Assembly: GCA_036005065.1 (NCBI GenBank)
Contig: DASYQW010000331.1
Location: forward strand, 1-38,450
Source of the DNA: Candidatus Methylomirabilota bacterium
Lineage (GTDB): Bacteria > Methylomirabilota > Methylomirabilia > Rokubacteriales > DASRDR01
Direction of reading: 5' to 3'
Length of the DNA stretch: 38,450 nt
The notes under the pieces were generated by a model. That model was not told the origin of the DNA. It saw only the letters and a list, made by a program, of their open reading frames with translations, and searched no databases. The translations under genes were made by a program, and so were the position numbers. Positions 1-24,843 of this stretch are shown here, piece by piece (the first letter of the stretch is position 1; every line of letters begins with the position of its first letter).

Positions 1-40
1 CCTTCGGACTTGCTGGGCGGTCGGGTCCGGCGATGGGACA

Positions 41-147
41 GGGCCAAGCCCCGAGCAGCCCTAGGACGCAGGGAGGAGGCGGGCCGAGGCGTATGCCGCA
101 TACGTTGAGGCCCGCCGGCGACCGAGGACGACGGGATGCGACGGGGA
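41..147. repeat. Interspersed intergenic repeat, copy 1 (hairpin at 79-115)
   Basis: This is the first of three related intergenic sequences (others at 20729-20833 and 24686-24843). The core is a hairpin with a 7-bp GCGGGCC/GGCCCGC outer stem, a conserved GA/GA internal mismatch, two G-T pairs, and CGTATGC/GCATACG around one central base. It lies 47 nt past the stop codon of the minus-strand gene ending at 163. Flanking blocks (CCTAGGACGCAGGGAGG on the left, CCGAGGACGACGGGATGCGA on the right) are also shared. Nothing else was recognised in 1-162. Its function is unknown; it could be a structured RNA element or a REP-like repeat. Confidence 0.7.
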
Positions 148-162
148 TCGGCCCGGGCCGAC

Positions 163-1434
163 TCATGCCGCGCGCCCCAGCACCAGCGCCGCGTGCCCCC
201 CACCGCGAGCCAGGGCGTGGAGCAGGACCGCGCGCGCGCCCGGCAGCGGGACGACCGGGCCGCGCGCGAACGCAAACCCCTCGCGCGCCGGCACCGCCAG
301 ATCCGGCAGGCCCGGCAGCTCGCCGCCGGCGACCGTCGCGACCGCCGCCGCGGCCACCCGGAGGCCGCCCATCCCGGCGTGCTCGCCGGCCAGCGGGGTC
401 AGCGAGGTCAGCAGCGGGCGCCGGCCGACGGCCCCGTCGAAGACGCCGGCCATGAGGTCGAGCTCGCAGGCGTCTTGGGCCGGATCGCCGGTGCCGGTGA
501 GGTATGCGGCATCCACCGCGTCCGGCCCGATGCCCGCGGCCGCGAGCGCCCGACGGACGACCGCCGGATCGCGCCGGCGCCGCGGGGGGAGCGCGTGCGG
601 CGCCGCCGGCAGGTTCCCGGATGCGATCCCGGCCAGCGTGGCGTAGACCCGCGCGCCGCGGGCGCGAGCGGCGTCGGCCGCCTCCAGCAGGAGGACGGTG
701 GCTCCCTCCCCGACGACGGTGCCGTTGGCGCGACGGTCGAACGGCCAGCAGCCCTCCGGCCCCGACCCGCGCGGTGAGATGGCCCCGAGGCGCCCGAGCT
801 CCCGGTAGAGGATCGGGCACAGGTCGTCGACGCCGCCCGCCAGCACCGCCGGGGCGCGCCCCGCCGCAATGAAGCCGGCCGCGCGCACGACCGCCAGCTC
901 CCCCGCGATGCCGGCCTGGTTCACGGTCAGCATGGGCCCCTGCGCGGCCACCGCGATCGCCGCGTGGGCGGCCATCGCGTTCATGACGGTGTTCGGAAAC
1001 GCCATCGGGGAGAGGCCCAGGGGACCGCGCGTGAGGTAGCCGAGAGCGAAGGCTTCGGAGGAACGGAAGTCCCCGTAGGCCGAGCCGAGCACGAGGCCGA
1101 GTCCCGGCAGAGTCCCGACGTCGATTCCGGCATCGGCCAGGGCGAGCCGACAGGCGACGACCGCGAGCTGGCTCGCGCGGGACAGCCGGCGCACCTCGTC
1201 AGCCGTGAGGTGGGGAGTGAGGTCCCCGACCTCGCCGCCGAGGCGGTGCGGCCCATGGCCGGTCGAGAAGGCCTGCACCGGCCGGATCGCCGGGACGCCG
1301 CGGACCAGGGCGGCCGCCAGGCTCGCCCCGCCGCCGATCCCGAGGGCGCTCACGCTCCCCACCCCGGTGATCACGACCGCGCCCGCGGCGTCCCATCGTC
1401 CGCGCGCGGCCACGTTCCCCATCGAGTCCCTCAC
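163..1434 (-). CDS. Chain-length-factor-like ketosynthase homologue (Cys replaced by Gln)
   Basis: A 423-residue thiolase-fold protein of the beta-ketoacyl synthase family. The active-site Cys position reads TVNQAG, with Gln at residue 173. This is the QAG hallmark of type II polyketide chain-length factors. The HGTGT motif has become LTGTGD, and the second His region (SLTPLAGEHAG) is also altered, so condensation activity is not expected. In KS-CLF heterodimers such a partner shapes the tunnel and sets product length. The start is GTG at 1434, 6 nt after the preceding ketosynthase's stop; an in-frame ATG at 1422 is an alternative. It is the last gene of the cassette in this window and probably partners the protein at 1441-2652. 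The exact product is unknown. Confidence 0.85.
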   Translation of the reverse strand: MRDSMGNVAARGRWDAAGAVVITGVGSVSALGIGGGASLAAALVRGVPAIRPVQAFSTGHGPHRLGGEVGDLTPHLTADEVRRLSRASQLAVVACRLALADAGIDVGTLPGLGLVLGSAYGDFRSSEAFALGYLTRGPLGLSPMAFPNTVMNAMAAHAAIAVAAQGPMLTVNQAGIAGELAVVRAAGFIAAGRAPAVLAGGVDDLCPILYRELGRLGAISPRGSGPEGCWPFDRRANGTVVGEGATVLLLEAADAARARGARVYATLAGIASGNLPAAPHALPPRRRRDPAVVRRALAAAGIGPDAVDAAYLTGTGDPAQDACELDLMAGVFDGAVGRRPLLTSLTPLAGEHAGMGGLRVAAAAVATVAGGELPGLPDLAVPAREGFAFARGPVVPLPGARAVLLHALARGGGHAALVLGRAA

Positions 1435-1440
1435 GGGCTC

Positions 1441-2652
1441 TCAGTCCTCGGCCCGCCGGCCGTCGGGAACCCGGCCGAACAGCAGCGCGGCGTTCTGGCC
1501 GCCGAACCCGAACGAGTTCGACATCGCCCACTCGAGGCGGGCCGGCCGCGCCCGGATCGGCACGCAATCGAAGGGCACCTCCGGGTCGGGCTCGGTCAGG
1601 TTCGCCGTGGGCGGCACCAGCTCGTGGACGAGCGTCAGGACGGTGGCGATCGCCTCGAGGGCTCCGGCGGCGGCCATCGTGTGCCCGATCAGCGACTTGT
1701 TGGCGCTCACCAGCACCGTGTCGGGGCCGAAGACCTTCCGGAGCGCCAGTGCTTCGGCCCGGTCGTTCTGCACGGTCCCCGTGCCATGCGCGTTCACGTA
1801 GCCCACGGCGCTGGCAGCCACGCCACCGCGCTCCAGGGCCTCGACCATGGCGCGCGCGCTCCCCTCGGCGTCGGGGTGGGGCGCGGTCGTGTGATAGGCG
1901 TCGGTCGTGAGCCCCCAGCCCCCCAACGCGGCATATGGCCGCGCGCCGCGCGCCCGAGCATGGTCGGCCTGCTCCAGCACGACGAAGCCGGCCCCCTCAC
2001 CGATCGACATGCCGCGCCGGTTCGCCGAGAAAGGCCGGCACGGCTCCGGATCGAGGAGCTTCAGGGCGTTGAACCCCATGAAGCAGATCCGGGTCAGGCC
2101 ATCGACCCCGCCGGCCAGGGCCAGCGGGACGTCCCCGGCGGCGACGAGATCGGCGGCCAACCCGATGGCGGCTGCCCCGGAGCTACAGGCGAGCACGACG
2201 GTCTCCTTCGGACCGGTGGTGTTGTAGCGCCGGGCCAGCGTCTCCGCGTGCGAGGTCGGCAGGATACTCGGAAGGGCACGCCGCAGCCGAGGATCGTCCA
2301 CGCCCTCCCGGCGGATCCGCCAGTACCAGGCCTCGGCCTCGAGCATTCCGCCTCCGATTCCCCCGACGATGACCCCGGCCGAGCGGAGAGCGGGGGGCGT
2401 GAGGCCGGCGTCCAGGACCGCCTCGTCGGCGGCGGCGAGCGCCAGACGGTCCGCCCGCGTGCGACGGGCCGATGTGCTCGGCACGGCGGCCGCCGGCACC
2501 TCGGCGGCGATCCGCGCCCGGAACCCGTCGGTCGGGAAGAGTGTGAGCGGACCGATGGCGCAACGGCCCTCGGCCAGCCCGGCCCAATAGATGGCACGCC
2601 CGCGACCGTACGGGCTCACCACGCCGACTCCGGTGACGACGACCCGGCTCAC
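1441..2652 (-). CDS. Beta-ketoacyl-[ACP] synthase (FabF/KS-alpha type), catalytically complete
   Basis: A 403-residue ketosynthase, full length for the KAS II family. It has the nucleophile in VLACSSGAA (Cys156), the first His in NAHGTGT (His289), and Lys319 and His324 in NKSLIGHTMAAAG. It would condense an acyl chain with a malonyl-ACP-type extender in the cytoplasm. The start is GTG at 2652, overlapping the stop of the acyl carrier protein gene (GTGA), so the two are probably translationally coupled. The next gene downstream is a Cys-less homologue with the CLF-type Gln, which makes a KS-CLF heterodimer the most economical reading. A stand-alone housekeeping FabF is less likely given three homologues in tandem. 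Confidence 0.9.
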   Translation of the reverse strand: MSRVVVTGVGVVSPYGRGRAIYWAGLAEGRCAIGPLTLFPTDGFRARIAAEVPAAAVPSTSARRTRADRLALAAADEAVLDAGLTPPALRSAGVIVGGIGGGMLEAEAWYWRIRREGVDDPRLRRALPSILPTSHAETLARRYNTTGPKETVVLACSSGAAAIGLAADLVAAGDVPLALAGGVDGLTRICFMGFNALKLLDPEPCRPFSANRRGMSIGEGAGFVVLEQADHARARGARPYAALGGWGLTTDAYHTTAPHPDAEGSARAMVEALERGGVAASAVGYVNAHGTGTVQNDRAEALALRKVFGPDTVLVSANKSLIGHTMAAAGALEAIATVLTLVHELVPPTANLTEPDPEVPFDCVPIRARPARLEWAMSNSFGFGGQNAALLFGRVPDGRRAED

Positions 2653-2951
2653 GACTCGGGTGCAGGCCGATCGGCCGTCGCCACGAAGCGTGCGAGCGCT
2701 CCGAGCGTCGCGAAGTGCACCTCGACCGGATCGCCTTCCTGCACGACGACCCCGAAGCGCTCTTCGAGCGCGATCGACAGCTCGATGAAGTCGAGCGAGT
2801 CGAGGCCGAGGGATCCCTCGATCCCCTTCGGCAAGGGGGTCTCGGGGGTGATCGCCGCGACGCTCTTCGGATCGAACCGGAGCCGCTTGACGATGATGTC
2901 GCGTAACTCGCCGACGATTGCCTGTTCGTCCATCTGCTCCCTCGCGTTCAT
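2649..2951 (-). CDS. Acyl carrier protein
   Basis: A 100-residue acidic acyl carrier protein. The phosphopantetheine attachment site is Ser52 in GLDSLDFIEL, followed by the usual helix-rich C-terminal half. The ATG at 2951 overlaps the stop of the preceding gene as ATGA, which favours this start; a second in-frame ATG lies at 2933. The gene sits between the two ketosynthase pairs and overlaps the following ketosynthase by 4 nt. It is therefore the likely shared carrier for the cassette rather than the primary fatty-acid ACP. A longer reading upstream would run through the preceding gene in another frame and is not supported. Confidence 0.9.
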   Translation of the reverse strand: MNAREQMDEQAIVGELRDIIVKRLRFDPKSVAAITPETPLPKGIEGSLGLDSLDFIELSIALEERFGVVVQEGDPVEVHFATLGALARFVATADRPAPES

Positions 2952-3913
2952 GGCGAGAGTCGCCAGAGCAACGCGCCGTAGTCGTTCCGCCACGCCGCCG
3001 TGAGGAGGCACGGGCCGCCGAGGGCGCGCGCCCGCGCCAGCGCCAGGCCGATCAGCGGCCCGCACGCCAGCGCCTCGCCGGGGGCCCGCACCAACGTCGG
3101 CGGCGTCGTCCCGCAACGCCGCGCGAGCGCGGCCTGCTCGGCCCGGGCCGGGCCGCCCGCCCCGGCGCAACCCGCCAGGACCCGCGGGTTCTCACCCTCC
3201 AGGACCCTGTCGAGTACCCCGGCCACGGCGGGGCCCAGGCGAGCCCGCGGCGCCACCGTGGACGCCCAGCGGAGCGGCCCGTCCTGGCCGGGCTCGAGGA
3301 GGAGGCACACCGCGCCCTCGATGATCGGCCGACTGTAGAGCCGGCGGGCGCGGTGCATGAGGTCCCAGACCTCGTGCACCGTTTCCACCGCCAGCACGAG
3401 CACGCGATCGACGACCCCCTCCCTCAGCCACCGGGCAGCATACCAGAGCGCCTGCAGCGCCGCCGGGCCGCCCCCCATCAAGTTCACGGAGGGCCCCTGG
3501 ATGCCGGCCCCGATCGTCACCTCGCCCGGAACCGCGCTGGGGGCCGTGTAGGGGAAGTGCAGCGTCGTGGAGCCTTCGTCTTCCAGGAACGCCCGGTTCG
3601 CCGCCGCGTAGGCGGTGGCGCTGGCGTACACCAGACCCGTCCGCGCGCCGGCCAGTGCCCCCGGGGCGAGCCCGGCCTCGGCCGCCGCTCCGTTCACCGC
3701 CGCGACCGCGAGGAGACATTCGCGCGTGGCGCGGCGGAAGCGCTCGCCGCTGAGCGCCGGGGTCGGCGCGGGGAGGAGCGCCGCCGGGGCCTCGGCCTCG
3801 CCAGCCGGCAGCGCACCCGGGCCCTCGCCCCAGCCGGTGAGGAGACCGACCCCGGCCACGCGCGGCGCGGGCAGGGTGGGCTCCGGAGCTCGCTCGCTCC
3901 TAGGCGGCGCCAT
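2948..3913 (-). CDS. Ketosynthase-fold protein lacking the catalytic triad
   Basis: A protein of about 321 residues that aligns weakly with beta-ketoacyl synthases but is shorter than the usual 400. The region expected to hold the nucleophile reads SVNLMGGGPAAL, without Cys. No HGTGT motif is visible, and the second His block is replaced by GEALACG. It is therefore not expected to condense substrates and may act as a structural or chain-length partner of the ketosynthase just upstream, whose 3' end it overlaps by 14 nt. The start is uncertain: ATG at 3913 follows a weak ribosome site, and an in-frame ATG at 3946 would lengthen the protein by 11 residues. Its stop overlaps the ACP start (ATGA). 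Confidence 0.75.
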   Translation of the reverse strand: MAPPRSERAPEPTLPAPRVAGVGLLTGWGEGPGALPAGEAEAPAALLPAPTPALSGERFRRATRECLLAVAAVNGAAAEAGLAPGALAGARTGLVYASATAYAAANRAFLEDEGSTTLHFPYTAPSAVPGEVTIGAGIQGPSVNLMGGGPAALQALWYAARWLREGVVDRVLVLAVETVHEVWDLMHRARRLYSRPIIEGAVCLLLEPGQDGPLRWASTVAPRARLGPAVAGVLDRVLEGENPRVLAGCAGAGGPARAEQAALARRCGTTPPTLVRAPGEALACGPLIGLALARARALGGPCLLTAAWRNDYGALLWRLSP

Positions 3914-5120
3914 GGCTCTGCAGGAGCAGCGCGGCATTGCAGCCACCGAAGCCGAGCGAGGTGGACAGGCTCAGGCGCGGGCGGTACTGGCGGGCCTCGT
4001 TCGGCACACAGTCGAGATCGCACGCCGGGTCCGGCAGGGCGAAGTTGAGCGTGGGCGGCACCTGCCCGTGCCGGCCGGCCAGCAGACACATGATGGCCTC
4101 GAGCGTGGCCGCTGCCCCCATCGTGTGGCCCAGGTGGGCCTTGATCGAGTTCACCGGGATCGTGCGCGCTCGATGGCCGAGCACGCGAATGAGCACATCG
4201 GCCTCCACGCGGTCGTTGGCCGGCGTCCCCGTCCCGTGAGCGCTCACGAAGTCGACGGCGCTCGGCTCGAGCCCGGCCTCGGCGAACGCCAGGCGGATCG
4301 CCAACTCGAGCCCCCGGCCCTCGGGGTCGGGCGCCGTGATGTGGACCCCGTCGGCCGTGCTCCCGTGTCCGAGCAGGAAGCCGAGCGGAGCCCGTCGGCC
4401 GCGCGCGGCCGCGTCGCCGGCCCGCTCGAGCACCACGATCCCCGCCCCTTCGCCGAGGAGGAGCCCGCTGCGGCGGCGATCGAACGGCCGGACCTCGTCA
4501 CGGGTCAGCGAGCGAAGGACGTTGAAGCCGCGCAGGACGAACCGGCAGAGGACGTCGACGCCCCCGGCCACCGCGACATCCGCCTGCCTCGCCCGCAACA
4601 GGTCCGCGGCCACGCCCAGGCTCGTGCCCCCCGAGGCGCACGCCGTGCACACCGTCAGCACCGGCCCCTGGACGCCGAGCCAGCGGGCGAGGTTCCAGCT
4701 CGGACCGTCGTAGAGTGACCCGACCAGGGTGCGGAGGCCGCCTTCGCCTCGAACGGCCCGGCCGGCGTCGTCGATCCCCCCCAGAGCCGTGCCGACGACC
4801 ACCGCCATGCGCGCGGGGTCCGGCTCGCCGGCCCCGAACCCGGCGCCGGCCAGCGCCTCCCGGGTCGCCTGGATCAGGAACCGCGAGGCGCGGCAGGCGG
4901 GAACGCGCCGCTCGTCGTCGCCGGCGCCCGCCGGGCGGGCCAGCTTCTTCACCTCCCCGCCCCGGGTGACCCGCTGATCGGCCACCGGGAACCGCTCGAT
5001 CTCGCCGATGCCGGAGGCGCCGGTCACGAGCCCCGTCCAGAACGCGTCGAGGTCCTGGCCGATGGGCGTGACGACCCCGGCACCGGTGACCGCGATCGGC
5101 TCGACCCCCCGCCGGCTCAC
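3900..5120 (-). CDS. Beta-ketoacyl-[ACP] synthase (FabF/KS-alpha type), catalytically complete
   Basis: A 406-residue ketosynthase and the first gene of the cassette. The nucleophile lies in TACASGGTS (Cys161), the first His in SAHGTGT (His295), and Lys327 and His332 in SIKAHLGHTMGAAA. The C-terminal glycine-rich loop (SLGFGGCNAAL) is intact. The GTG start at 5120 lacks a strong ribosome site. The downstream overlap with a triad-less homologue repeats the order active KS then inactive KS seen at 2652-163. The cassette therefore looks like two KS/partner modules sharing one ACP. No ketoreductase, dehydratase or thioesterase is seen in the window, so they would have to lie elsewhere or to the left. 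Confidence 0.9.
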   Translation of the reverse strand: MSRRGVEPIAVTGAGVVTPIGQDLDAFWTGLVTGASGIGEIERFPVADQRVTRGGEVKKLARPAGAGDDERRVPACRASRFLIQATREALAGAGFGAGEPDPARMAVVVGTALGGIDDAGRAVRGEGGLRTLVGSLYDGPSWNLARWLGVQGPVLTVCTACASGGTSLGVAADLLRARQADVAVAGGVDVLCRFVLRGFNVLRSLTRDEVRPFDRRRSGLLLGEGAGIVVLERAGDAAARGRRAPLGFLLGHGSTADGVHITAPDPEGRGLELAIRLAFAEAGLEPSAVDFVSAHGTGTPANDRVEADVLIRVLGHRARTIPVNSIKAHLGHTMGAAATLEAIMCLLAGRHGQVPPTLNFALPDPACDLDCVPNEARQYRPRLSLSTSLGFGGCNAALLLQSHGAA

Positions 5121-5164: not shown

Positions 5165-6010
5165 CTACAGGAGGGGCGAGGTGTAGAGCCGGAACGCGCG
5201 TACGCGCCCGGGTGGGCTGTACGGCAAAGGCTCTACCCAGAAGCCGCGCGTGAGAGGGTCGAAGTGGAGACCGAGCGGGCTGGCAGGGTCATTCGGATCG
5301 TAGGCGAGGAATTCGAGGGCGCCCGACCGAAGCCGGTATTCATAGACGAGGACCGCATGGTTGAGGACGTCCGGGTCCGGGAAGTTGGTGATCATGACGG
5401 GCGCCGGCCGGCCGGCATCGAGCTCCGCCCGGAGCTGGCGGGCAACGCGCTCCTGATGGGCGGCAGCCAGCGGGAACCCGGCGCGCCAGGTCCGCCAGTG
5501 CACCATGCTCAGGATGTTGGAGCCGAACGACGCCTTGAGCGTCGCCTCGTGGGCGCGCGAAAACTCGAAGAGGCTCGGGTATCCCGGGATGACCACGCGC
5601 TCGGCGTCCGGTCGCGGCGCGGCCCACGCGGAGATGCGCATCACCTCGCCGATTCGGCGCGCGTACTCCGCCTCCGAGACCGGCGGCTCGGCCGGCGCGA
5701 AGCGCGCGAAGCGGAAGAACTGGCTCGCGGCGCGCGCCATGAGGATGCAGTAGTTGGCGAAGTCGACGTGCCGCTCCGGATGGTGCGACCGGACCAGGTT
5801 CGGGAACGCGAAGGTATCCCGTCCGACCTCGAAGGCCGGGCGATCGACCCGGTTCGCGGGGGTCGGCCCATCGAGCGCGCCCGTCGCGCAACCGGACAGG
5901 AGAAGGCCGGAGAGGATCGCCGGGACCAGCCAGGAGAAGAATCGCGGCCGGCCAGACCGGGGTCGATCGCCCCGTCCCCGACCGCGCTCCGCGGGGGTCA
6001 CACGCGCCAT
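5165..6010 (-). CDS. Papain-fold (YDPN-type) cysteine-hydrolase-like lipoprotein
   Basis: A 281-residue predicted lipoprotein. A basic N-terminus and hydrophobic stretch end in a lipobox LLLSGC (Cys41), so the mature protein should be anchored to a membrane outside the cytoplasm. The mature part has Cys88 in NYCILMARAA, His218 in LNHAVLVYEY and Asp238/Asn240 in YDPNDP. That order and spacing fit papain-like hydrolases and transglutaminase relatives. Catalysis is inferred from this pattern only. It ends 44 nt before the ketosynthase cassette on the same strand and may be co-transcribed with it. Its substrate is unknown. ATG at 6010 is chosen because the signal sequence follows it. Confidence 0.65.
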   Translation of the reverse strand: MARVTPAERGRGRGDRPRSGRPRFFSWLVPAILSGLLLSGCATGALDGPTPANRVDRPAFEVGRDTFAFPNLVRSHHPERHVDFANYCILMARAASQFFRFARFAPAEPPVSEAEYARRIGEVMRISAWAAPRPDAERVVIPGYPSLFEFSRAHEATLKASFGSNILSMVHWRTWRAGFPLAAAHQERVARQLRAELDAGRPAPVMITNFPDPDVLNHAVLVYEYRLRSGALEFLAYDPNDPASPLGLHFDPLTRGFWVEPLPYSPPGRVRAFRLYTSPLL

Positions 6011-9824: not shown

Positions 9825-10778
9825 CTACGACACCCGCCCGGGCCGGGCGAGCGGCGGGAGGCCGGCCGCCCGGAGCGCCCGGTGGATCGCCTCGCGCTCC
9901 GCGTCGCTCACCGGCGTGAGCGGCGGACGGACGTGCGCCCCCGGAATCCGGCCGAGCAGGACGAGCGCTTCTTTCATGCGGTTGTGCATGTCGACGAAGG
10001 GCGGCGCGTAGAACACGCGCACCAGCGGGTCGAGGCGGTCGTTCAGGCGCCGGGCTTCCTCCAGGTCGCCCTTCTGGCACGCCTGGAAGAGCGCGGCCTG
10101 CAGGTCGGCGGTGACGCTTCCCATGCCCGAGATCACGCCGTCCGCGCCCAGCAGGAACGAGGCCATCAGCGACATGGTGAACGACGAGAGCACGGCGACC
10201 GGCCGCCCGGTCGCCCGCAGGGCACGGAGGTTCCGCTCGTAGGCCACGATGTCGTTCGACCAGTCCTTCACCGCGGCGACCTGGGGAATCTCGGCGAGCC
10301 GGGCCAGGGTTTCCGGCGCGTACCCGATGCCCGAGGCCACGGGATACTCGAAGACGACGATGGGCAGATCGGCGCCGGCCGCGATCTCGCTCACGTGGCG
10401 CCACACCATGTCGGGCTTGAGCTGGGCGCCCCACATGAAGAGGGTGGGCGGGAAGACGAGGACGCCGGCCGCGCCGGCCGCCTTCGCGTCCCGGGCGAGC
10501 TCCACGGCCTCCTGGGTGCCGTCCGCGTACACGCCGGCGATCACGGGACACTTGCCGCCGATCTCGTCGAGCGCGAGGCGGAGCGCGTGGCGGCGCTCGT
10601 CCCGGCTCAGCGACGACACCTCGGCCGCGTGTCCGTTGGCCACGATCCCGGTGACGCCCGAGGTGTCGGCGAGCCAGCGGAGGTGGCGGCGGTAGGCGGC
10701 CTCGTCGATCGACAGGTCCGCGTTGAACGGCAGGATGTTGGCCGGCATCACGCCGGCGAAGCGCAAGGGCTCGTTCAT
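9825..10778 (-). CDS. DapA/N-acetylneuraminate-lyase superfamily aldolase
   Basis: A 317-residue TIM-barrel protein of the dihydrodipicolinate synthase family. The Schiff-base Lys171 is in VAAVKDW, and the partner Tyr145 is in VVFEYP. The GTTGE-type phosphate/carboxylate loop of true DapA reads GHAAEVSSL here, losing both threonines. A different oxo-acid substrate is therefore more likely than aspartate semialdehyde. It should catalyse a pyruvate-type aldol addition or cleavage, or a dehydration, in the cytoplasm. The ATG at 10778 overlaps the stop of the B12-domain gene (ATGA) and follows a good GAGGAG site. Its position just after a coenzyme-B12 mutase suggests a step in the same degradation route. 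Confidence 0.8.
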   Translation of the reverse strand: MNEPLRFAGVMPANILPFNADLSIDEAAYRRHLRWLADTSGVTGIVANGHAAEVSSLSRDERRHALRLALDEIGGKCPVIAGVYADGTQEAVELARDAKAAGAAGVLVFPPTLFMWGAQLKPDMVWRHVSEIAAGADLPIVVFEYPVASGIGYAPETLARLAEIPQVAAVKDWSNDIVAYERNLRALRATGRPVAVLSSFTMSLMASFLLGADGVISGMGSVTADLQAALFQACQKGDLEEARRLNDRLDPLVRVFYAPPFVDMHNRMKEALVLLGRIPGAHVRPPLTPVSDAEREAIHRALRAAGLPPLARPGRVS

Positions 10779-11179
10779 GGCTCACTCCTCAGGGTGCGAT
10801 CACGCCCGCCGCCGTCGCGGCCGACCCAGAGGGCCAGCTCGTCGAGCGGACGGCCGGGACCGAAGACGTCGGCCACGCCGAGCGCCCGGAGGGCCGGCAC
10901 CTCCTGCGGCGGGATGGTGCCGCCCACCAGGACGGGCACGCGGACCCCACGGGCGCCCAGGGCCTGGAAGACCTCGGGCAACAGATCCCGATGGCCACCC
11001 GAGAGCGTCGACAGACAGATCAGGTCCGCCGCCTCCTGGAGCGCCGACTCGGCGATCTCCTCCGGGAACTGGTTGCCGAGATAGAGGACCTCCGCCCCCA
11101 GCTCGCGCAACGTCCGCACGACGGCGACCGCGCCCCGCCAGTGGGAGTCGAGCCCGAGGATGGCGACCAGAGCCTTCAT
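10775..11179 (-). CDS. B12-binding small subunit of an acyl-CoA mutase
   Basis: A 134-residue cobalamin-binding domain. The lower-axial-ligand motif DxHxxG is at residues 11-16 (DSHWRG, His13), followed by the STLSGGH and VLVGG segments that hold the dimethylbenzimidazole tail. The size matches the separate small subunits of isobutyryl-CoA and 2-hydroxyisobutyryl-CoA mutases. It would bind adenosylcobalamin base-off and pair with the large subunit encoded 25 nt upstream. ATG 11179 is chosen because the fold begins directly there; 28 further upstream codons are not family-like. It overlaps the DapA-like gene by 4 nt. Confidence 0.9.
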   Translation of the reverse strand: MKALVAILGLDSHWRGAVAVVRTLRELGAEVLYLGNQFPEEIAESALQEAADLICLSTLSGGHRDLLPEVFQALGARGVRVPVLVGGTIPPQEVPALRALGVADVFGPGRPLDELALWVGRDGGGRDRTLRSEP

Positions 11180-11204
11180 GGAGTGAAGTCCGCGCGTGGC
11201 GGGA

Positions 11205-12881
11205 TCACACCAGCGGAAGGGTCCAGGGCCCGTAGTGGACGCGGAAGCGCTCGTGGACCTCACGGAGGGTGGCCCCCGCCTCCACCGCAGCCGTGATGGC
11301 GTCGAACGTGTTGCGGTCGCTCCTGAGCGCCTGGGCGAGCGCGTCGAGGGCTCGGGCGACGGCCTGGGTCTCCCGCGCTGCCCTGACGCGCCGGAGGCGC
11401 ACGGCCTGCCGCGCGACCGCCGAGGGCTCCGCGAACACCTCGGGGGGAGCGGGGTCGCCCTCGCTGAAGCGGTTCACCCCGACCAGCGGCAGGCGCCCAG
11501 CCTTCACGCCCGCCCGGTAGGCCTCGGCCGAAGCCGTCAGGCGGGCGTGAAGCCAGCCCGTCTCGGTCACCCGCACGATCCCGCCCCGGGCGTCGATCTC
11601 GGCGCCCAGCGCCCGGGCGCGCTCCTCCAGCTCGTCGGTCAAGCGCTCGACGAGGTAGGAGCCGCCGAGCGGGTCCACGGTCTCGGTCACGCCGGACTCG
11701 TGCTGGATGATCTGCTGGATCCGAAGCGCCAGCCGGGCCGAGCTCTCGCTCGGCAGGCAGTAGGCCTCGTCGTGAGCCGAGACATGGAGCGACTGGGCGC
11801 CTCCGAGCACGGCGGCCAGCGCCTGGTAAGCGCCCCGCACGACGTTGCCGAGCGGCTGCTGGGCGGTGAGGGTCACGCCCGAGGTCTGGACGTGGAACCG
11901 CAGGGCCCGGGCCCGCGCCGGGAGCTCTCCGAATTCTTCGCCGAGGAGACGATGCCACAGGCGGCGGGCCGCCCGGCACTTGGCGATCTCTTCGAAGAAC
12001 GTCCGGTGGGCCGAGAAGAAGAAGCTGAGGCGGGCCGCCACCCGATCCGGGGCGAGGCCCCGCCGGCGAAGCTCCCGCAGGACCGCCAGGGCATGGGCCA
12101 GACAGAGGGCGAGCTCTTCCACGGCCGTCGCCCCCGCCTCGCGGAGGTTGTAACCCACGAAGGAGATCGGGTTCCACCGCGGGAGGTGCTCGATCGCATG
12201 CTCGATCGCATCGCACTCGAGGCGGAAGGCCCCCGCTGGCGGGAGGGCGCGCGGCGCCGTCGTGACGGCGGTCTCCATGAGGAAGTCGTTCTGGCTGGTC
12301 CCGGCCAGGCGCTCGGCCGGAATGTTCCGGCGGCGCGCCATGGAGGCGTACATCGCCAGGAGGATGATGGCCATACCCGGGTTGCAGGTGACCAGCGACA
12401 CGCTGAGCGTGTCGACGGGGATCCCGGCGAACAGCACGTCCACGTCTTCGAGGCAATCCACCGCCACCCCGCCCCGGCCCGCCTCGGCCCTCGCTTCGGG
12501 GTCGTCCGAGTCGTATCCGCGGAGCGTCGGGTAGTCGAAGGTGAGCGAGAGACCGGTCGCGCCCTGGGCGAGCAGGAACCGGAAGCGCGCGTTGGTGTCC
12601 TCGGGCGTGCCGAAACCCGCCAGCGGCCGGATCGTCCAGAGCCGGCTCCGGTACATCGCCGGGTGGGCGCCGCGGGTGTACGGGGGCGCACCCGGGAAGC
12701 CGAGGTCGCGAAGGTAGTCGCGCGCGGAGCCATCGGCCGGGACGGCGAGCGGCGGGAGCGGGATCCCGGACACGGTCTCGAACCGCGGCGCCCGCTCGGG
12801 GCTCCGGGCGTGCCGCTCCCCGAGCCACCGCCGGAATTCCCGGGCGAGGTCCTGGGGTCCGTCTGGGCCTTGACGACTCAT
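11205..12881 (-). CDS. Coenzyme-B12-dependent acyl-CoA mutase, large subunit, unusual substrate residues
   Basis: A 558-residue catalytic subunit of the methylmalonyl-CoA mutase family without a B12 domain, as in isobutyryl-CoA (ICM) and 2-hydroxyisobutyryl-CoA (HCM) mutases. It has TNARFRFLLAQGATGLS, DYPTLRGYDSDD, NPISFVGYNLREAGAT and QTSGVTLTAQQPLGN. By my alignment to P. shermanii mutase, the Tyr89 position is Leu87 (WTIRPLAGF) and the Arg207 position is Thr207, neither of which fits a methylmalonyl carboxylate. ICM and HCM carry other residues there, so the substrate is open. ATG 12881 is used because the 24 upstream codons lie in an intergenic hairpin element. No MeaB-type chaperone gene was seen. 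Confidence 0.88.
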   Translation of the reverse strand: MSRQGPDGPQDLAREFRRWLGERHARSPERAPRFETVSGIPLPPLAVPADGSARDYLRDLGFPGAPPYTRGAHPAMYRSRLWTIRPLAGFGTPEDTNARFRFLLAQGATGLSLTFDYPTLRGYDSDDPEARAEAGRGGVAVDCLEDVDVLFAGIPVDTLSVSLVTCNPGMAIILLAMYASMARRRNIPAERLAGTSQNDFLMETAVTTAPRALPPAGAFRLECDAIEHAIEHLPRWNPISFVGYNLREAGATAVEELALCLAHALAVLRELRRRGLAPDRVAARLSFFFSAHRTFFEEIAKCRAARRLWHRLLGEEFGELPARARALRFHVQTSGVTLTAQQPLGNVVRGAYQALAAVLGGAQSLHVSAHDEAYCLPSESSARLALRIQQIIQHESGVTETVDPLGGSYLVERLTDELEERARALGAEIDARGGIVRVTETGWLHARLTASAEAYRAGVKAGRLPLVGVNRFSEGDPAPPEVFAEPSAVARQAVRLRRVRAARETQAVARALDALAQALRSDRNTFDAITAAVEAGATLREVHERFRVHYGPWTLPLV

Positions 12882-12906
12882 GTCGCCATGCCGTACCGGC
12901 TCGTCC

Positions 12907-12994
12907 GAGCGCTTCCGGCCGAAGCGCTCCGAGCGCGGGCTTCGCCCGCGCAACCCGGGGGGAGGTTGGGAGGGGGCCGTCGAGGCCCCCTCCC
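12907..12994. repeat. GC-rich multi-hairpin element 2
   Basis: Three hairpins in a row: GAGCGCTTC/GAAGCGCTC (12907-12929), GCGCGGGC-TTC-GCCCGCGC (12933-12951) and GGGAGGGGGCC-GTCGA-GGCCCCCTCCC (12968-12994). It fills the 118-nt gap between the PaaK-like gene (stop at 13000) and the mutase gene (start 12881). The last two hairpins match, inverted, those at 21799-21865. It may act in mRNA stabilisation, pausing or as a REP-like element. Confidence 0.65.
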
Positions 12995-12999
12995 AGGAT

Positions 13000-14277
13000 C
13001 TAATCCCACTTGCGCTGGTCCTCGATCTTCTTGGCGCCCTCGGGGATCGTGCCCGGCGGCACCACCCGGACGTCGCCCCGGAGCTTCATGACGTCGCGGA
13101 TCGCCGCCACCGTGGCCGCCTGCACGCTCTCCGCGTCGCCGGCCGCCCGCAGCTCCACGCTGAACGTCAGCACGTCCTGGTGGTCCTGGCGCGTCACCAC
13201 GACCTGATAGCGGGCCACTCCGGGGACACGCGCCGCCACCTCGTCGGCCTGTCGGGGGTGGATGAACATGCCGCGGACCTTGGTCACCTCGTCGGCGCGG
13301 CCGCGCCACCCGAGCATCCGGGGGGAGGTCCGCCCGCACGGGCACGGGGCCTCGGTGACGACCGACAGGTCACCGGTCCCGAACCGGATCATGGGGTAGG
13401 TCTTGTGGTTCACCGTGCAGACGATCTCACCCACCTCGCCGGCCGGGAGCGGCGCCCCGGTCTGGGGATCGCAGATCTCGAAGATCGCGTCCTCCATGAG
13501 ATGCATCCCGGCCGCTTCGCGGCACTCGTAGGCCACGATCCCGAGGTCGGCGGTGCCGAACGATTGACGTGTGAGGATCCCGTGTTCCTCCTGAAAGGTC
13601 CGGCGGAGCGACTCGGGCAGCGCCTCGGCGCCCACGTGGGCGACCTGAAGCGGCAGCGGCCGTCCGAGGCCCCGCTCCGTCGCCTGCTTGAGGATCGTCA
13701 CGAGAAAGGAGGGGGTCCCCACGTAACCGGTGGCCCCGAGGTCGACAATCGTCTTGACCTGGACCTCGGTGTTGCCGGGGCCGGTCGGGATGACCGTGCA
13801 GCCGAGCCGGACGAGGCCGCGGTCGATCAGGTGGGCGGCCGGCGTCAGGTGGTAGAGGAACGTGTTCACCACCACGTCGCCCGGACGGAAGCCGCCGGCG
13901 AAGCACGAGACCTCCGTCCGCCACGGGCTCCGGTCCCGGCGGTCGAACGGCTCGTAGATGGGACCGGGCGAGACGAAGATCCAGTGGAGGTCCTCGGCCG
14001 GGACGGTGCAGAAGCCGCCGAAGGGCGGGTCGGCCCGCTGGAGGTCCGGCATCGCGGCCTTTCTGATGACGGGGAGCCGGCTCAGGTCCTCCAGCGTGCG
14101 GAGGGCCGAGGGCTTGAGCTGGGACGCCTCCAGGCGGCGGCGGAGGCCCGGAGCCTTGCGCCAGGCGTGGGCGATGAGCCCCTTGAGCCACGCCTCCTGG
14201 TAGCGGCGGCGGGCCCGGACGCTCATCGTCTCACGTGTCCTGTCGTAGTAGCCCTTCAGACGCTCGCTTCGGATCAT
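13000..14277 (-). CDS. PaaK-like acyl-CoA ligase family protein with altered ATP loop
   Basis: A 425-residue member of the phenylacetate-CoA ligase branch of adenylate-forming enzymes. The C-terminal half is typical: GEIVCTVNHKTYPMIRFGTG, a PCPCGRT Cys pair, and GRADEVTKVRGMFIHP. The usual SSGTTGKP phosphate loop is replaced by SPGPIYEP (103-110), so ordinary ATP-dependent activation is uncertain. ATG 14277 overlaps the stop of the LLM oxidoreductase gene (ATGA). A ligase beside a two-subunit mutase recalls the 2-hydroxyisobutyrate pathway, where the acid is CoA-activated and then rearranged. That role is an inference. The protein may instead bind or transfer an existing acyl-CoA. Confidence 0.82.
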   Translation of the reverse strand: MIRSERLKGYYDRTRETMSVRARRRYQEAWLKGLIAHAWRKAPGLRRRLEASQLKPSALRTLEDLSRLPVIRKAAMPDLQRADPPFGGFCTVPAEDLHWIFVSPGPIYEPFDRRDRSPWRTEVSCFAGGFRPGDVVVNTFLYHLTPAAHLIDRGLVRLGCTVIPTGPGNTEVQVKTIVDLGATGYVGTPSFLVTILKQATERGLGRPLPLQVAHVGAEALPESLRRTFQEEHGILTRQSFGTADLGIVAYECREAAGMHLMEDAIFEICDPQTGAPLPAGEVGEIVCTVNHKTYPMIRFGTGDLSVVTEAPCPCGRTSPRMLGWRGRADEVTKVRGMFIHPRQADEVAARVPGVARYQVVVTRQDHQDVLTFSVELRAAGDAESVQAATVAAIRDVMKLRGDVRVVPPGTIPEGAKKIEDQRKWD

Positions 14278-15245
14278 GTCCGCTCTCCCGCTCGCCCGCC
14301 CGGCCGGCTGCTGCCGAACGCCGGCAGCACCTCTTCGGCGAAGGCGTGGAGCGCCTCCCACTCGTAGGGACCCATCCGGAGCGCGAGGTTGAGGCGCGCC
14401 ACCCCGGCGTCGCGGTACCCCGCCACCACCTCGAGCGCCTGACGGGGCGTGCCGCGAAGGAAGCCCCGCCGCCCCTTCAGGTCCGGCCCCCACTGGGCCC
14501 GGAGGAGCGTCTCCTGCCGGGCAGCCTCGCGCTCGTCGGCGCCCAGGTAGAAGCCGACGTTGGCGCTGCGGATGATGTCGGCCGGATCGCGCCCCTCCCG
14601 CCGGCACCAATCGTCGAGGACCGCGTTCTTCGCCCTCCACGCCGGCGGATCGAGGTACGGGCCATTCCACCCGTCGGCGTGGCGGGCCGCCGCTCGCAGG
14701 GTCCGCTTCTCGCCCTGGCCGCCGATCCAGATGCGCAGGCGGGACTGGAGCGGCCGGGGATTGTTCCGCGCGTCGGCGAGCTGGTAGTACCGCCCGGTGA
14801 AGCTCGAGACCTTCTGATCGAAGAGGAGGCGGAGCACCTGGGCGTATTCTTCGAGCTGGTCCTCCCGGACGTCGATGGGGGCGAAAGGAATGCCGAAGGC
14901 CCGGTACTCGACGTCGTGCCATCCGGCCCCGATGCCGCACTCCACACGGCCTCCCGACAGGTGGTCGATCGCCGTCAGAGACTTGGCGAGGAGCCCGGGG
15001 TTCCGGTAGCTGACGCAGAAGACGAGACAGCCCAGCCGGACGATTCGCGTCTCGAGGGCGGCCGCGGTCAGGGTGGCCACCCCCTCGAAGCAGTCGCCGT
15101 CTCCGCCCTGGGGCGGGGACTCCTGGAAGTGGTCGGAGACGGAGAACCAGTCGAAGCCGCGCTCGTCGGCGAAGCGCCACAGCCGGCGCAGCTCGGACAG
15201 CGGCCCCCCCAGGTGCCCCACGTGGATGCCGAACGTCATGGCCAT
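14274..15245 (-). CDS. LLM-class flavin-dependent oxidoreductase
   Basis: A 323-residue luciferase-like monooxygenase-family TIM barrel. N-terminal TFGIHVGHLGGP, SVSDHF, the LGCLVFCVSYRNPGLLAKS strand-helix and SGGRVECGIGAGWHDVEYRAFG are characteristic of the F420/FMN-binding group. It probably uses reduced F420 or FMN to oxidise or reduce a carbonyl or acyl substrate; the cofactor cannot be fixed from sequence alone. ATG 15245 lies 12 nt after the SDR gene's stop, with a second in-frame ATG at 15239. It overlaps the ligase gene. With SDR, ligase and mutase it forms a tight catabolic operon. Confidence 0.88.
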   Translation of the reverse strand: MAMTFGIHVGHLGGPLSELRRLWRFADERGFDWFSVSDHFQESPPQGGDGDCFEGVATLTAAALETRIVRLGCLVFCVSYRNPGLLAKSLTAIDHLSGGRVECGIGAGWHDVEYRAFGIPFAPIDVREDQLEEYAQVLRLLFDQKVSSFTGRYYQLADARNNPRPLQSRLRIWIGGQGEKRTLRAAARHADGWNGPYLDPPAWRAKNAVLDDWCRREGRDPADIIRSANVGFYLGADEREAARQETLLRAQWGPDLKGRRGFLRGTPRQALEVVAGYRDAGVARLNLALRMGPYEWEALHAFAEEVLPAFGSSRPGGRAGERT

Positions 15246-15257
15246 GGCATCACGCCC

Positions 15258-16022
15258 TCATCGTGTCGTCAACGTGAGGCCCGCGTCAATGACCAGCACC
15301 TGGCCGGTGACCCAGCGCGCCTCGTCGCTGGCGAGATAGACCGCCCCCCACCCCACGTCCCACCCGGTCCCTTCCGTCCCGAGCGGCGTCGCCCGCCGCC
15401 GGCGCTCGCGGGCCTCGGGGCCGAGCGCCTCGACCATCGGCGTCCACACCGTCCCGGGCGCGATCGCGTTGACCCGGATGCCCTGGGGCCCCAGCTGGAC
15501 GGCGACGCTCTGCACGAAGCCGATCACGCCGGCCTTGGCCGCCGCGTAGGCCGTGCGGCCATGACCGCGGAGCGCCGCCACCGAGGAGACGCAGATGACT
15601 GCGCCGCCGCCCCGGGCGACCAGGGCCGGCACCGCGCACCGGGTGGCCAGGAACATCGACTTGAGGTCGACGGCCAGCACGCGGTCCCACTCCTCCTCGG
15701 TCACCTCGAGAAGGTCCTTGCGCGACTCGATCCCGACGTTGTTGTGGAGGATGTCCAGGCCGCCCCAGCGCTCGACGGCGGCCGCGACCATGGCGCGGCA
15801 CGCCTCGACGCGGGTGACGTCAGCGGCGAACGCCTCCGCCTGGCCACCCTCGGCGCGGATCAGCGCGACCGTCTCGTCCGCCCGCTCGCTCTCCCGATCG
15901 ACGCAGAGGACGCGCGCGCCTTCCCGCGCGAACAGGGTCGCGGCGGCCTTGCCGTTGCCGACCCCGGGGCCGCGCGAGCCGGCGCCGGTGACGATGGCGA
16001 CTTTGCCGGCCAGCCGGCTCAT
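15258..16022 (-). CDS. Short-chain dehydrogenase/reductase
   Basis: A 254-residue classical SDR of standard length. The dinucleotide loop is TGAGSRGPGVGNG (12-24), with Asp42 at the end of the second strand, which favours NAD(H). NNVG (94-97) stands for the usual NNAG, the catalytic Ser is in CVSSVAA (146/147), and Tyr159 and Lys163 form the YxxxK motif. It should interconvert a hydroxy and an oxo group on a small or CoA-bound substrate. ATG 16022 overlaps the stop of the membrane-protein gene (ATGA). A much longer in-frame reading upstream runs through that gene and is not real. The substrate is unknown. Confidence 0.92.
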   Translation of the reverse strand: MSRLAGKVAIVTGAGSRGPGVGNGKAAATLFAREGARVLCVDRESERADETVALIRAEGGQAEAFAADVTRVEACRAMVAAAVERWGGLDILHNNVGIESRKDLLEVTEEEWDRVLAVDLKSMFLATRCAVPALVARGGGAVICVSSVAALRGHGRTAYAAAKAGVIGFVQSVAVQLGPQGIRVNAIAPGTVWTPMVEALGPEARERRRRATPLGTEGTGWDVGWGAVYLASDEARWVTGQVLVIDAGLTLTTR

Positions 16023-16552
16023 GCCCGGGATCCCGAGCCGACCCGGTAGGGCGGGCGCTGGGGAACGCCGCCCCGGATCACCGGCCAGCCGCCGACCTCG
16101 TGAAGGGCCGTCACCAGCCGGCTCACGTAGGCGGGATCCGAGCTCACGTCGATGGGCCAGCCGAAGTCTCCGGCGCGGCGGAGCTCGACCTCGTAGCCGC
16201 GGTCGCCCCCCTCGGGCCCTTCGATGAGGATCGCCTCGATCTCGTCGAAGGGCACCGCGCTCACCGGCCGGAACATGGAGCCGAGGCCGCGCCGGAAGGC
16301 GGCTTCCCGCGCCCGCCGGTCGAAGACGATCCAGTCGCGGTGGCGCGCGGCCCCGAGGCCAGCCAGGACGGCGATCACGCCCAGCGGAAGCGCGACCACA
16401 CTGCCGATCAGCGTCATCTGGCCGGCGAGGACGCCGGCCAGGACGAGCCCCCCGGCGCCGATGCCGGCCACGGCAGTCACCCACCGGGCGCCGCCGACGC
16501 GAGTCAGGAGGAGAGACCCATCGGCACGCGGCTCGATCCGCAGGTTCGCCAT
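16019..16552 (-). CDS. Two-TM membrane protein of unknown function
   Basis: A 177-residue protein I do not recognise. After a short polar N-terminus it has two adjacent hydrophobic helices (about 24-44 and 47-68) forming a hairpin in the membrane. A soluble beta-rich domain follows, including RHRDWIVFDRRAREAAFRRG and DEIEAILIEG, reminiscent of PH-like domains seen after such TM hairpins. That resemblance is only suggestive. It is the first gene of the SDR-LLM-ligase operon in this window and overlaps the SDR by 4 nt, so co-expression is very likely. ATG 16552 is used. Confidence 0.65.
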   Translation of the reverse strand: MANLRIEPRADGSLLLTRVGGARWVTAVAGIGAGGLVLAGVLAGQMTLIGSVVALPLGVIAVLAGLGAARHRDWIVFDRRAREAAFRRGLGSMFRPVSAVPFDEIEAILIEGPEGGDRGYEVELRRAGDFGWPIDVSSDPAYVSRLVTALHEVGGWPVIRGGVPQRPPYRVGSGSRA

Positions 16553-20728: not shown

Positions 20729-20833
20729 GGGCCGAGACCCGAGCCGCCCTGGGACGCAGGCCCGAGCCGGCCCGAGGCGTATGCAGCATACGTTGAGGGC
20801 CGGCGACGGCCGAGGACGACGGGATGCGACGGG
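20729..20833. repeat. Interspersed intergenic repeat, copy 2 (hairpin at 20766-20804)
   Basis: The hairpin has an outer stem GCCGGCCC/GGGCCGGC, then the GA/GA mismatch, two G-T pairs and CGTATGC/GCATACG around a central A. The outer stem differs from copies 1 and 3 on both sides in matching fashion. It lies 40 nt after the livH stop and before livM. The right block CCGAGGACGACGGGATGCGA is identical to copy 1. Confidence 0.7.
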
Positions 20834-20844
20834 TGTCGGCACGG

Positions 20845-24685: not shown

Positions 24686-24843
24686 GGGCCGAGACCCGAG
24701 CAGCCCTGCCAGGGGTCGGCGCGCGTGGGGCCAAGTGACGAGCATGGCTAGGACGCAGGGAGGAGGCGGCCCGAGGCGTATGCCGCATCCGTTGAGGGCC
24801 GCCGACGACCGAGGACGACGCCAGGCGAAGTCAATTGGCCCCA
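24686..24843. repeat. Interspersed intergenic repeat, copy 3 (hairpin at 24765-24803)
   Basis: The hairpin has outer stem GGCGGCCC/GGGCCGCC, the GA/GA mismatch, two G-T pairs, and CGTATGC/GCATCCG with one mismatch. It lies 42 nt after the livF stop at 24846. Relative to copy 1 it holds about 43 extra bases between CAGCCCT and AGGACGCAGGGAGG. The TGGGGCCAAGTGA (24726-24738) and TCAATTGGCCCCA (24831-24843) form an inverted pair bounding this part. Confidence 0.68.

What the first reader, a model, noticed from the sequence alone, without database searches (positions are those of the whole stretch)
163..5120. Two ketosynthase/inactive-partner pairs around a single ACP: an unusual type II PKS-like cassette
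The gene order is active KS, triad-less KS-fold, ACP, active KS, CLF-like (Gln173 in QAG). All four junctions are overlapping or nearly so. Type II polyketide, aryl polyene and highly reducing systems use KS-CLF heterodimers, but two pairs with one ACP and no ketoreductase, dehydratase or cyclase alongside does not match a layout I know. It may make an iterated or two-stage chain.
Basis: partly seen in the sequence, partly recalled or inferred. Interest (0 to 1): 0.75.

Follow-up and report, generated by a model that had tools for sequence, protein, structure and literature searches.

The report
Rokubacterial double ketosynthase–partner lipid operon
A group of uncultured soil bacteria carries a conserved operon that seems to build a fatty or polyketide chain on one carrier protein with two condensing enzymes, each next to its own inactive partner, probably as part of an envelope glycolipid whose chemistry is unknown.

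Summary
On the minus strand, 5120-163, five genes with near-zero junctions encode an active ketosynthase (KS1), a shortened inactive KS-fold protein (KS2), an ACP, a second active KS (KS3) and a full-length inactive partner (CLF4). It is not chance: the same order occurs in most Rokubacteriales MAGs that carry it, over 25 complete loci. KS1 and KS3 are separate clades apart from housekeeping FabF, nearest to the aryl-polyene KS ApeO. KS2's predicted fold best matches the chain-length factors of ishigamide and actinorhodin synthases. CLF4 lacks every catalytic residue; the 'Gln173' mark is not conserved and not at the nucleophile column. In one distant genome the two pairs lie on different contigs. 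The window is a whole contig that ends in a dispersed repeat just after CLF4. Relatives continue with GT2, FAD oxidoreductase, MacB/Lol-type ABC exporter, ArnE- and ArnT-like proteins and HpnJ; the window's genome has most of these on another contig. Best reading: a dissociated synthase for the acyl part of an exported glycolipid, with two KS-CLF-like pairs on one ACP, related to aryl-polyene/xanthomonadin clusters but not a member. Pairing, product and order of action are inferred.

The parts
5165..6010 (-). LPP: predicted lipoprotein with invariant Cys88, His218 and Asp238 (papain-like or acyltransferase-like triad possible); first gene of the cassette
   Evidence: Orthologues lie just upstream in nearly all complete loci; invariant C/H/D; model pLDDT 80, only weak Foldseek hits, several to cysteine-protease folds; no Pfam or NCBIfam family
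3900..5120 (-). KS1: active beta-ketoacyl-ACP synthase
   Evidence: Pfam both KS domains; Cys-His-Lys-His kept; own clade grouping with KS3 and ApeO, apart from FabF
2948..3913 (-). KS2: shortened, catalytically dead KS-fold protein, CLF-like
   Evidence: Pfam N domain only; Gly at the nucleophile column; AlphaFold pLDDT 81, best Foldseek hits ishigamide and actinorhodin CLF
2649..2951 (-). ACP with LDSL phosphopantetheine site
   Evidence: Pfam PP-binding; LDSL invariant in the window and 16 relatives
1441..2652 (-). KS3: second active beta-ketoacyl-ACP synthase
   Evidence: Pfam; catalytic residues kept in all relatives; own clade with ApeO nearby
163..1434 (-). CLF4: full-length KS-fold protein lacking the catalytic residues (ATG start possible at 1422)
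   Evidence: Pfam and NCBIfam; residues lost; set with the CLFs apart from the active KSs (97/84); PDB hits include 9s5h_C and 1tqy_B
1..162 (.). Dispersed repeat, about 40 or more copies in the genome, at which the contig ends

Best explanation
A dissociated (type II) acyl/polyketide synthase that makes the chain of an exported envelope glycolipid. Shown: two active KSs, two dead KS-fold partners, one ACP, and fixed order with an LpxL-type acyltransferase (in many loci), GT2, FAD oxidoreductase, MacB/Lol-type ABC exporter, ArnE/EamA- and ArnT-like proteins. Inferred: KS1 pairs with KS2 and KS3 with CLF4; both pairs extend chains on the one ACP, with the partner shaping the pocket and limiting length; keto reduction and dehydration are borrowed from FabG/FabZ (as NodE/NodF do, from general knowledge) or, in this genome, from a FabG-like enzyme on contig C137; the LpxL-type enzyme moves the chain to a lipid; GT2 makes a polyprenyl-phosphate sugar that the ArnE-like protein flips and the ArnT-like protein transfers; the ABC exporter and lipoproteins carry the product outward. 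That KS1-KS2 works early and KS3-CLF4 late is a guess.
For: Order and sequence are conserved across the order. KS1 and KS3 are not FabF. KS2 fold is closest to ishigamide/actinorhodin CLF, and its N-terminal half groups with a Streptomyces CLF (L121 cluster) and 9s5h_C (SH-aLRT 87). In G099, LpxL-KS1-KS2 (L089) and ACP-KS3-CLF4-GT2-FAD-rSAM (L145) lie on different contigs. Downstream families. GT2, FAD and LpxL resemble those of aryl-polyene clusters. The window's genome has GT2, FAD, LpxL, MacB, ABC ATPase, FabG-like SDR, HpnL and HpnJ on C137.
Against: No heterodimer could be modelled. No product is known. KR/DH in trans is an assumption. In the window's genome the two halves are on different contigs, and C137 does not directly continue C331 (another gene's 3' end precedes GT2). 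One genome (L048/L073) lacks the ACP between KS2 and KS3. Several loci, the window included, lack the LpxL gene beside LPP.
Confidence: 0.55

Rival explanations
1. An aryl-polyene/xanthomonadin-type pigment cluster: KS1-KS2 acts like ApeO-ApeC and KS3-CLF4 takes the place of ApeR, giving a polyene pigment lipid.
For: KS1/KS3 group with ApeO (88/91). ACP best matches APE ACPs (37% to Cupriavidus). FAD enzyme 37% over 407 aa to the one in the Azospirillum cluster; GT2 and LpxL also related. A halogenase is also listed in the arcuflavin cluster (PMC3949708).
Against: No aryl starter enzyme, dedicated KR/DH, second ACP, LolA or MMPL exporter in the Rokubacterial loci read. KS2 is not detectably ApeC (hhalign probability 0.5%).
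Confidence: 0.2
2. A specialised fatty-acid elongation set, as NodE/NodF or rhizobial very-long-chain systems, making one unusual saturated or long acyl chain with housekeeping KR/DH/ER; the dead partners only stabilise the KSs.
For: No KR/DH in the operon; LpxL-type acyltransferase beside it; KS1 has 39% identity to a NodE-type KS.
Against: Two distinct dead partners are kept across the order; KS1/KS3 do not group with NodE or FabF in the tree.
Confidence: 0.2
3. A classical aromatic (poly-beta-keto) type II PKS with KR/cyclases elsewhere.
For: Minimal KS-CLF-ACP logic; unreduced chains need no KR/DH.
Against: No cyclase or aromatase in any locus read; KSs do not group with the aromatic KS; neighbours are envelope-lipid enzymes.
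Confidence: 0.05

Closest known systems
Aryl polyene (APE)/xanthomonadin clusters (E. coli CFT073, Azospirillum, Cupriavidus, Pseudoalteromonas; ApeO-ApeC, ApeR)
   Same: Active KS with a half-size dead partner, ACP, GT2, LpxL-type acyltransferase, FAD oxidoreductase in some; KS1/KS3 nearest ApeO
   Different: Second KS has its own full-length dead partner; no KR, DH, aryl starter, second ACP, LolA or MMPL; ABC exporter and ArnE/ArnT-like genes instead; KS2 not detectably ApeC
Highly reducing type II PKS (ishigamide KS-CLF; PDB 6KXD-F)
   Same: KS-CLF pairing; KS2 fold closest to the ishigamide CLF chains
   Different: One KS-CLF pair there; KR/DH encoded in the cluster (from general knowledge); soluble product, not an envelope lipid operon
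PDB 9s5h/9s5i KS pair (source organism not identified here)
   Same: Best solved match of KS1 (6e-81) and second of KS3; chain C is the second-best match of CLF4
   Different: Distant in the tree; source and function not established here
Dialkylresorcinol (dar) part of the arcuflavin cluster, Azoarcus BH72
   Same: KS, ACP, ABC permease and ATPase, BtrH-like cysteine-peptidase protein (PMC3949708)
   Different: No DarA or DarB seen among the genes of the loci read
NodE/NodF
   Same: KS plus ACP without own KR/DH
   Different: No partner proteins; single KS

Membership tests
Type II PKS KS-CLF minimal system | Active KS next to catalytically dead KS-fold partner | tested here: met
   two such pairs
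Type II PKS KS-CLF minimal system | Partner homologous to known CLFs | tested here: inconclusive
   KS2 by fold and weakly by tree; CLF4 falls with CLFs at 97/84 but stands alone in the N-half tree
Type II PKS KS-CLF minimal system | KS and CLF form a heterodimer | not testable with these tools
   only single chains can be modelled
Type II PKS KS-CLF minimal system | Cognate ACP | tested here: met
Aryl polyene / xanthomonadin cluster | ApeO-like KS | tested here: inconclusive
   KS1 and KS3 group with ApeO at 88/91, not a starred branch
Aryl polyene / xanthomonadin cluster | ApeC-type half-size CLF | tested here: not met
   hhalign KS2 v ApeC probability 0.5%; separate in tree
Aryl polyene / xanthomonadin cluster | Dedicated KR and DH, aryl starter enzyme, two ACPs, LolA/MMPL export | tested here: not met
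   absent from the Rokubacterial loci read; an SDR sits upstream in three loci and a FabG-like SDR on C137
Dialkylresorcinol / flexirubin | DarA aromatase and DarB cyclase | tested here: not met
   none among the annotated genes of L040; not searched genome-wide
Housekeeping FabF | Groups with FabF and passes the FabF equivalog cut-off | tested here: not met
   TIGR03150 346 and 321 bits against a cut-off of 494; tree

The most novel reading that the evidence does not exclude
A previously undescribed relay synthase in which two obligate KS-CLF heterodimers of different ancestry work in turn on one ACP to build the chain of a new glycolipid class characteristic of Rokubacteria, coupled by the operon to ArnT-like glycosylation and ABC export next to hopanoid genes.
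Probability: 0.3. Interest if true: 0.75.

Novelty: new variant of a known kind. Interest (0 to 1): 0.55.

Why it matters
Known KS-CLF systems use one heterodimer, or one heterodimer plus a homodimeric KS as in aryl polyenes. Two KS/dead-partner pairs on one ACP, kept across an uncultivated order found in soil and groundwater, would give a natural test of how chain length and stages are divided between KS-CLF pairs, and points to an uncharacterised envelope lipid of Rokubacteria.

Tried and rejected
KSQ-type decarboxylase reading of CLF4: Gln173 is misaligned and not conserved. KS2 as ApeC: no profile match. Joining C331 to C137 through the shared repeat: another gene's 3' end lies before GT2, so adjacency is not claimed. 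LPP identity: no family, weak fold hits only. KS2 relatives outside the group: plasmid search gave only two partial Streptomyces KS hits; the genome scan gave Rokubacteria, one MAG labelled Proteobacteria and a marginal Elusimicrobia hit (short patterns, so distant relatives can be missed). Three further genomes of G099's order had no KS2. Papers: 9S5H not found; no description of this layout seen in the paper searches (titles and abstracts, and the full text of a few).

Full report
What is there. The window is the whole contig C331 of a 5.6-Mb draft genome. Its relatives in the same order are named Candidatus Rokubacteria/Rokuibacteriota. On the minus strand lie LPP (6010-5165), KS1 (5120-3900), KS2 (3913-2948), ACP (2951-2649), KS3 (2652-1441) and CLF4 (1434-163). 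The junctions from KS1 on are 14-, 4- and 4-nt overlaps and a 6-nt gap. Pfam and NCBIfam give KS domains and a PP-binding domain; KS1 and KS3 fall well below the FabF equivalog cut-off.

Active and dead. On an alignment with E. coli FabF, KS1 and KS3 keep Cys164, His304, Lys336 and His341 in every relative that reaches those columns. KS2 has Gly in place of Cys and a reduced C-terminal half (most often 250-300 aa in relatives, about 320 here). CLF4 has lost Cys, His and Lys. Gln173 lies two columns before the nucleophile and is replaced by Val, Ala or Leu in most relatives. A His near the second-His motif is conserved in the CLF4 family (17 of 17) but is Tyr in the G099 protein; its role is open.

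Conservation. KS2 homologues occur in 45 of 99 relatives, all in the same order. In 36 loci from named genomes, KS1-KS2-ACP-KS3-CLF4 is complete and co-directional in about 28; most of the others are cut by contig ends. One genome (L048/L073) has KS2 running straight into KS3 without the ACP. Where contigs are long enough, the operon usually continues GT2, FAD oxidoreductase (CmlS/geranylgeranyl-reductase superfamily; fused to GT2 in L045 and L046), MacB-type permease, ABC ATPase, a 135-aa protein, an ArnE-like EamA protein, an ArnT-like PMT protein and HpnJ; some loci lack one or other of these. An LpxL-type acyltransferase lies between LPP and KS1 in many loci.

The missing flank. The first 162 nt of the window are a repeat with about 40 or more copies in the genome. 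The same genome carries GT2 and FAD (51-56% identity to those of L046), LpxL, MacB, a second FAD enzyme, ABC ATPase, a FabG-like SDR, HpnL and HpnJ on C137. C137 also ends near a copy of the repeat, but another gene's 3' end lies upstream of GT2, so the two contigs are not shown to be adjacent.

Pairs. In G099, a MAG labelled Proteobacteria, LpxL-KS1-KS2 sits on one contig (KS1 63% identical) and ACP-KS3-CLF4-GT2-FAD-rSAM on another (KS3 60%, CLF4 about 50%). This natural split supports the two adjacent pairs as units. It is not proof of heterodimers.

Ancestry. In a maximum-likelihood tree, KS1, KS3 and CLF4 are each one fully supported clade. KS1 and KS3 group with ApeO (88/91), apart from FabF, which groups with this genome's own FabF. 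KS2's N-terminal half groups with a Streptomyces CLF from a KS-CLF cluster (L121) and 9s5h_C (SH-aLRT 87, long branches). Its AlphaFold model (pLDDT 81) has ishigamide CLF as its top three PDB hits and actinorhodin CLF as fourth; many other KS structures follow closely, so this is a lean, not a proof. It shows no profile similarity to ApeC, although both are shortened partners; ApeC keeps one thiolase fold (PMC8358021). KS2 and CLF4 do not group with each other, so they are not a recent duplication.

Function. GT2, the FAD enzyme, LpxL and the ACP are each similar to aryl-polyene cluster proteins among those compared. ABC genes with a cysteine-peptidase-like protein are found in the dialkylresorcinol part of the arcuflavin cluster (PMC3949708); LPP has an invariant Cys, His and Asp that could serve such a role. 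Taken together the operon most likely builds an acyl or polyketide chain for an exported glycolipid. Reduction in trans by FabG/FabZ follows the NodE/NodF precedent (general knowledge), not evidence here.

Verdict. A real, conserved and apparently undescribed variant of KS-CLF type II systems; product and stage order are open.

Noticed in passing
window 1-165, 20729-20844, 24728-24841: Dispersed repeat of about 165 bp with about 40 or more copies in the genome; a contig end and further copies inside the window.
   Followed up: partly
L037 10713-13514 (G000:C333): A second KS-ACP-KS set in the same genome, directly upstream of several sensor/hybrid histidine kinases.
   Followed up: partly
L048 9994-11960 / L073: Cassette without the ACP gene: KS2 overlaps KS3 directly.
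   Followed up: no
L046 13384-15744; L045 4774-7104: GT2 and FAD oxidoreductase fused in one protein.
   Followed up: no
window 10775-16552: Operon with B12-binding and methylmalonyl-CoA mutase-like proteins, AMP-ligase, luciferase-like monooxygenase and SDR.
   Followed up: no
window 17435-38450: Several branched-chain-type ABC transporter sets interleaved with AMP-binding enzymes.
   Followed up: no
window 5165-6010: Lipoprotein family with invariant Cys, His and Asp and no Pfam family.
   Followed up: partly
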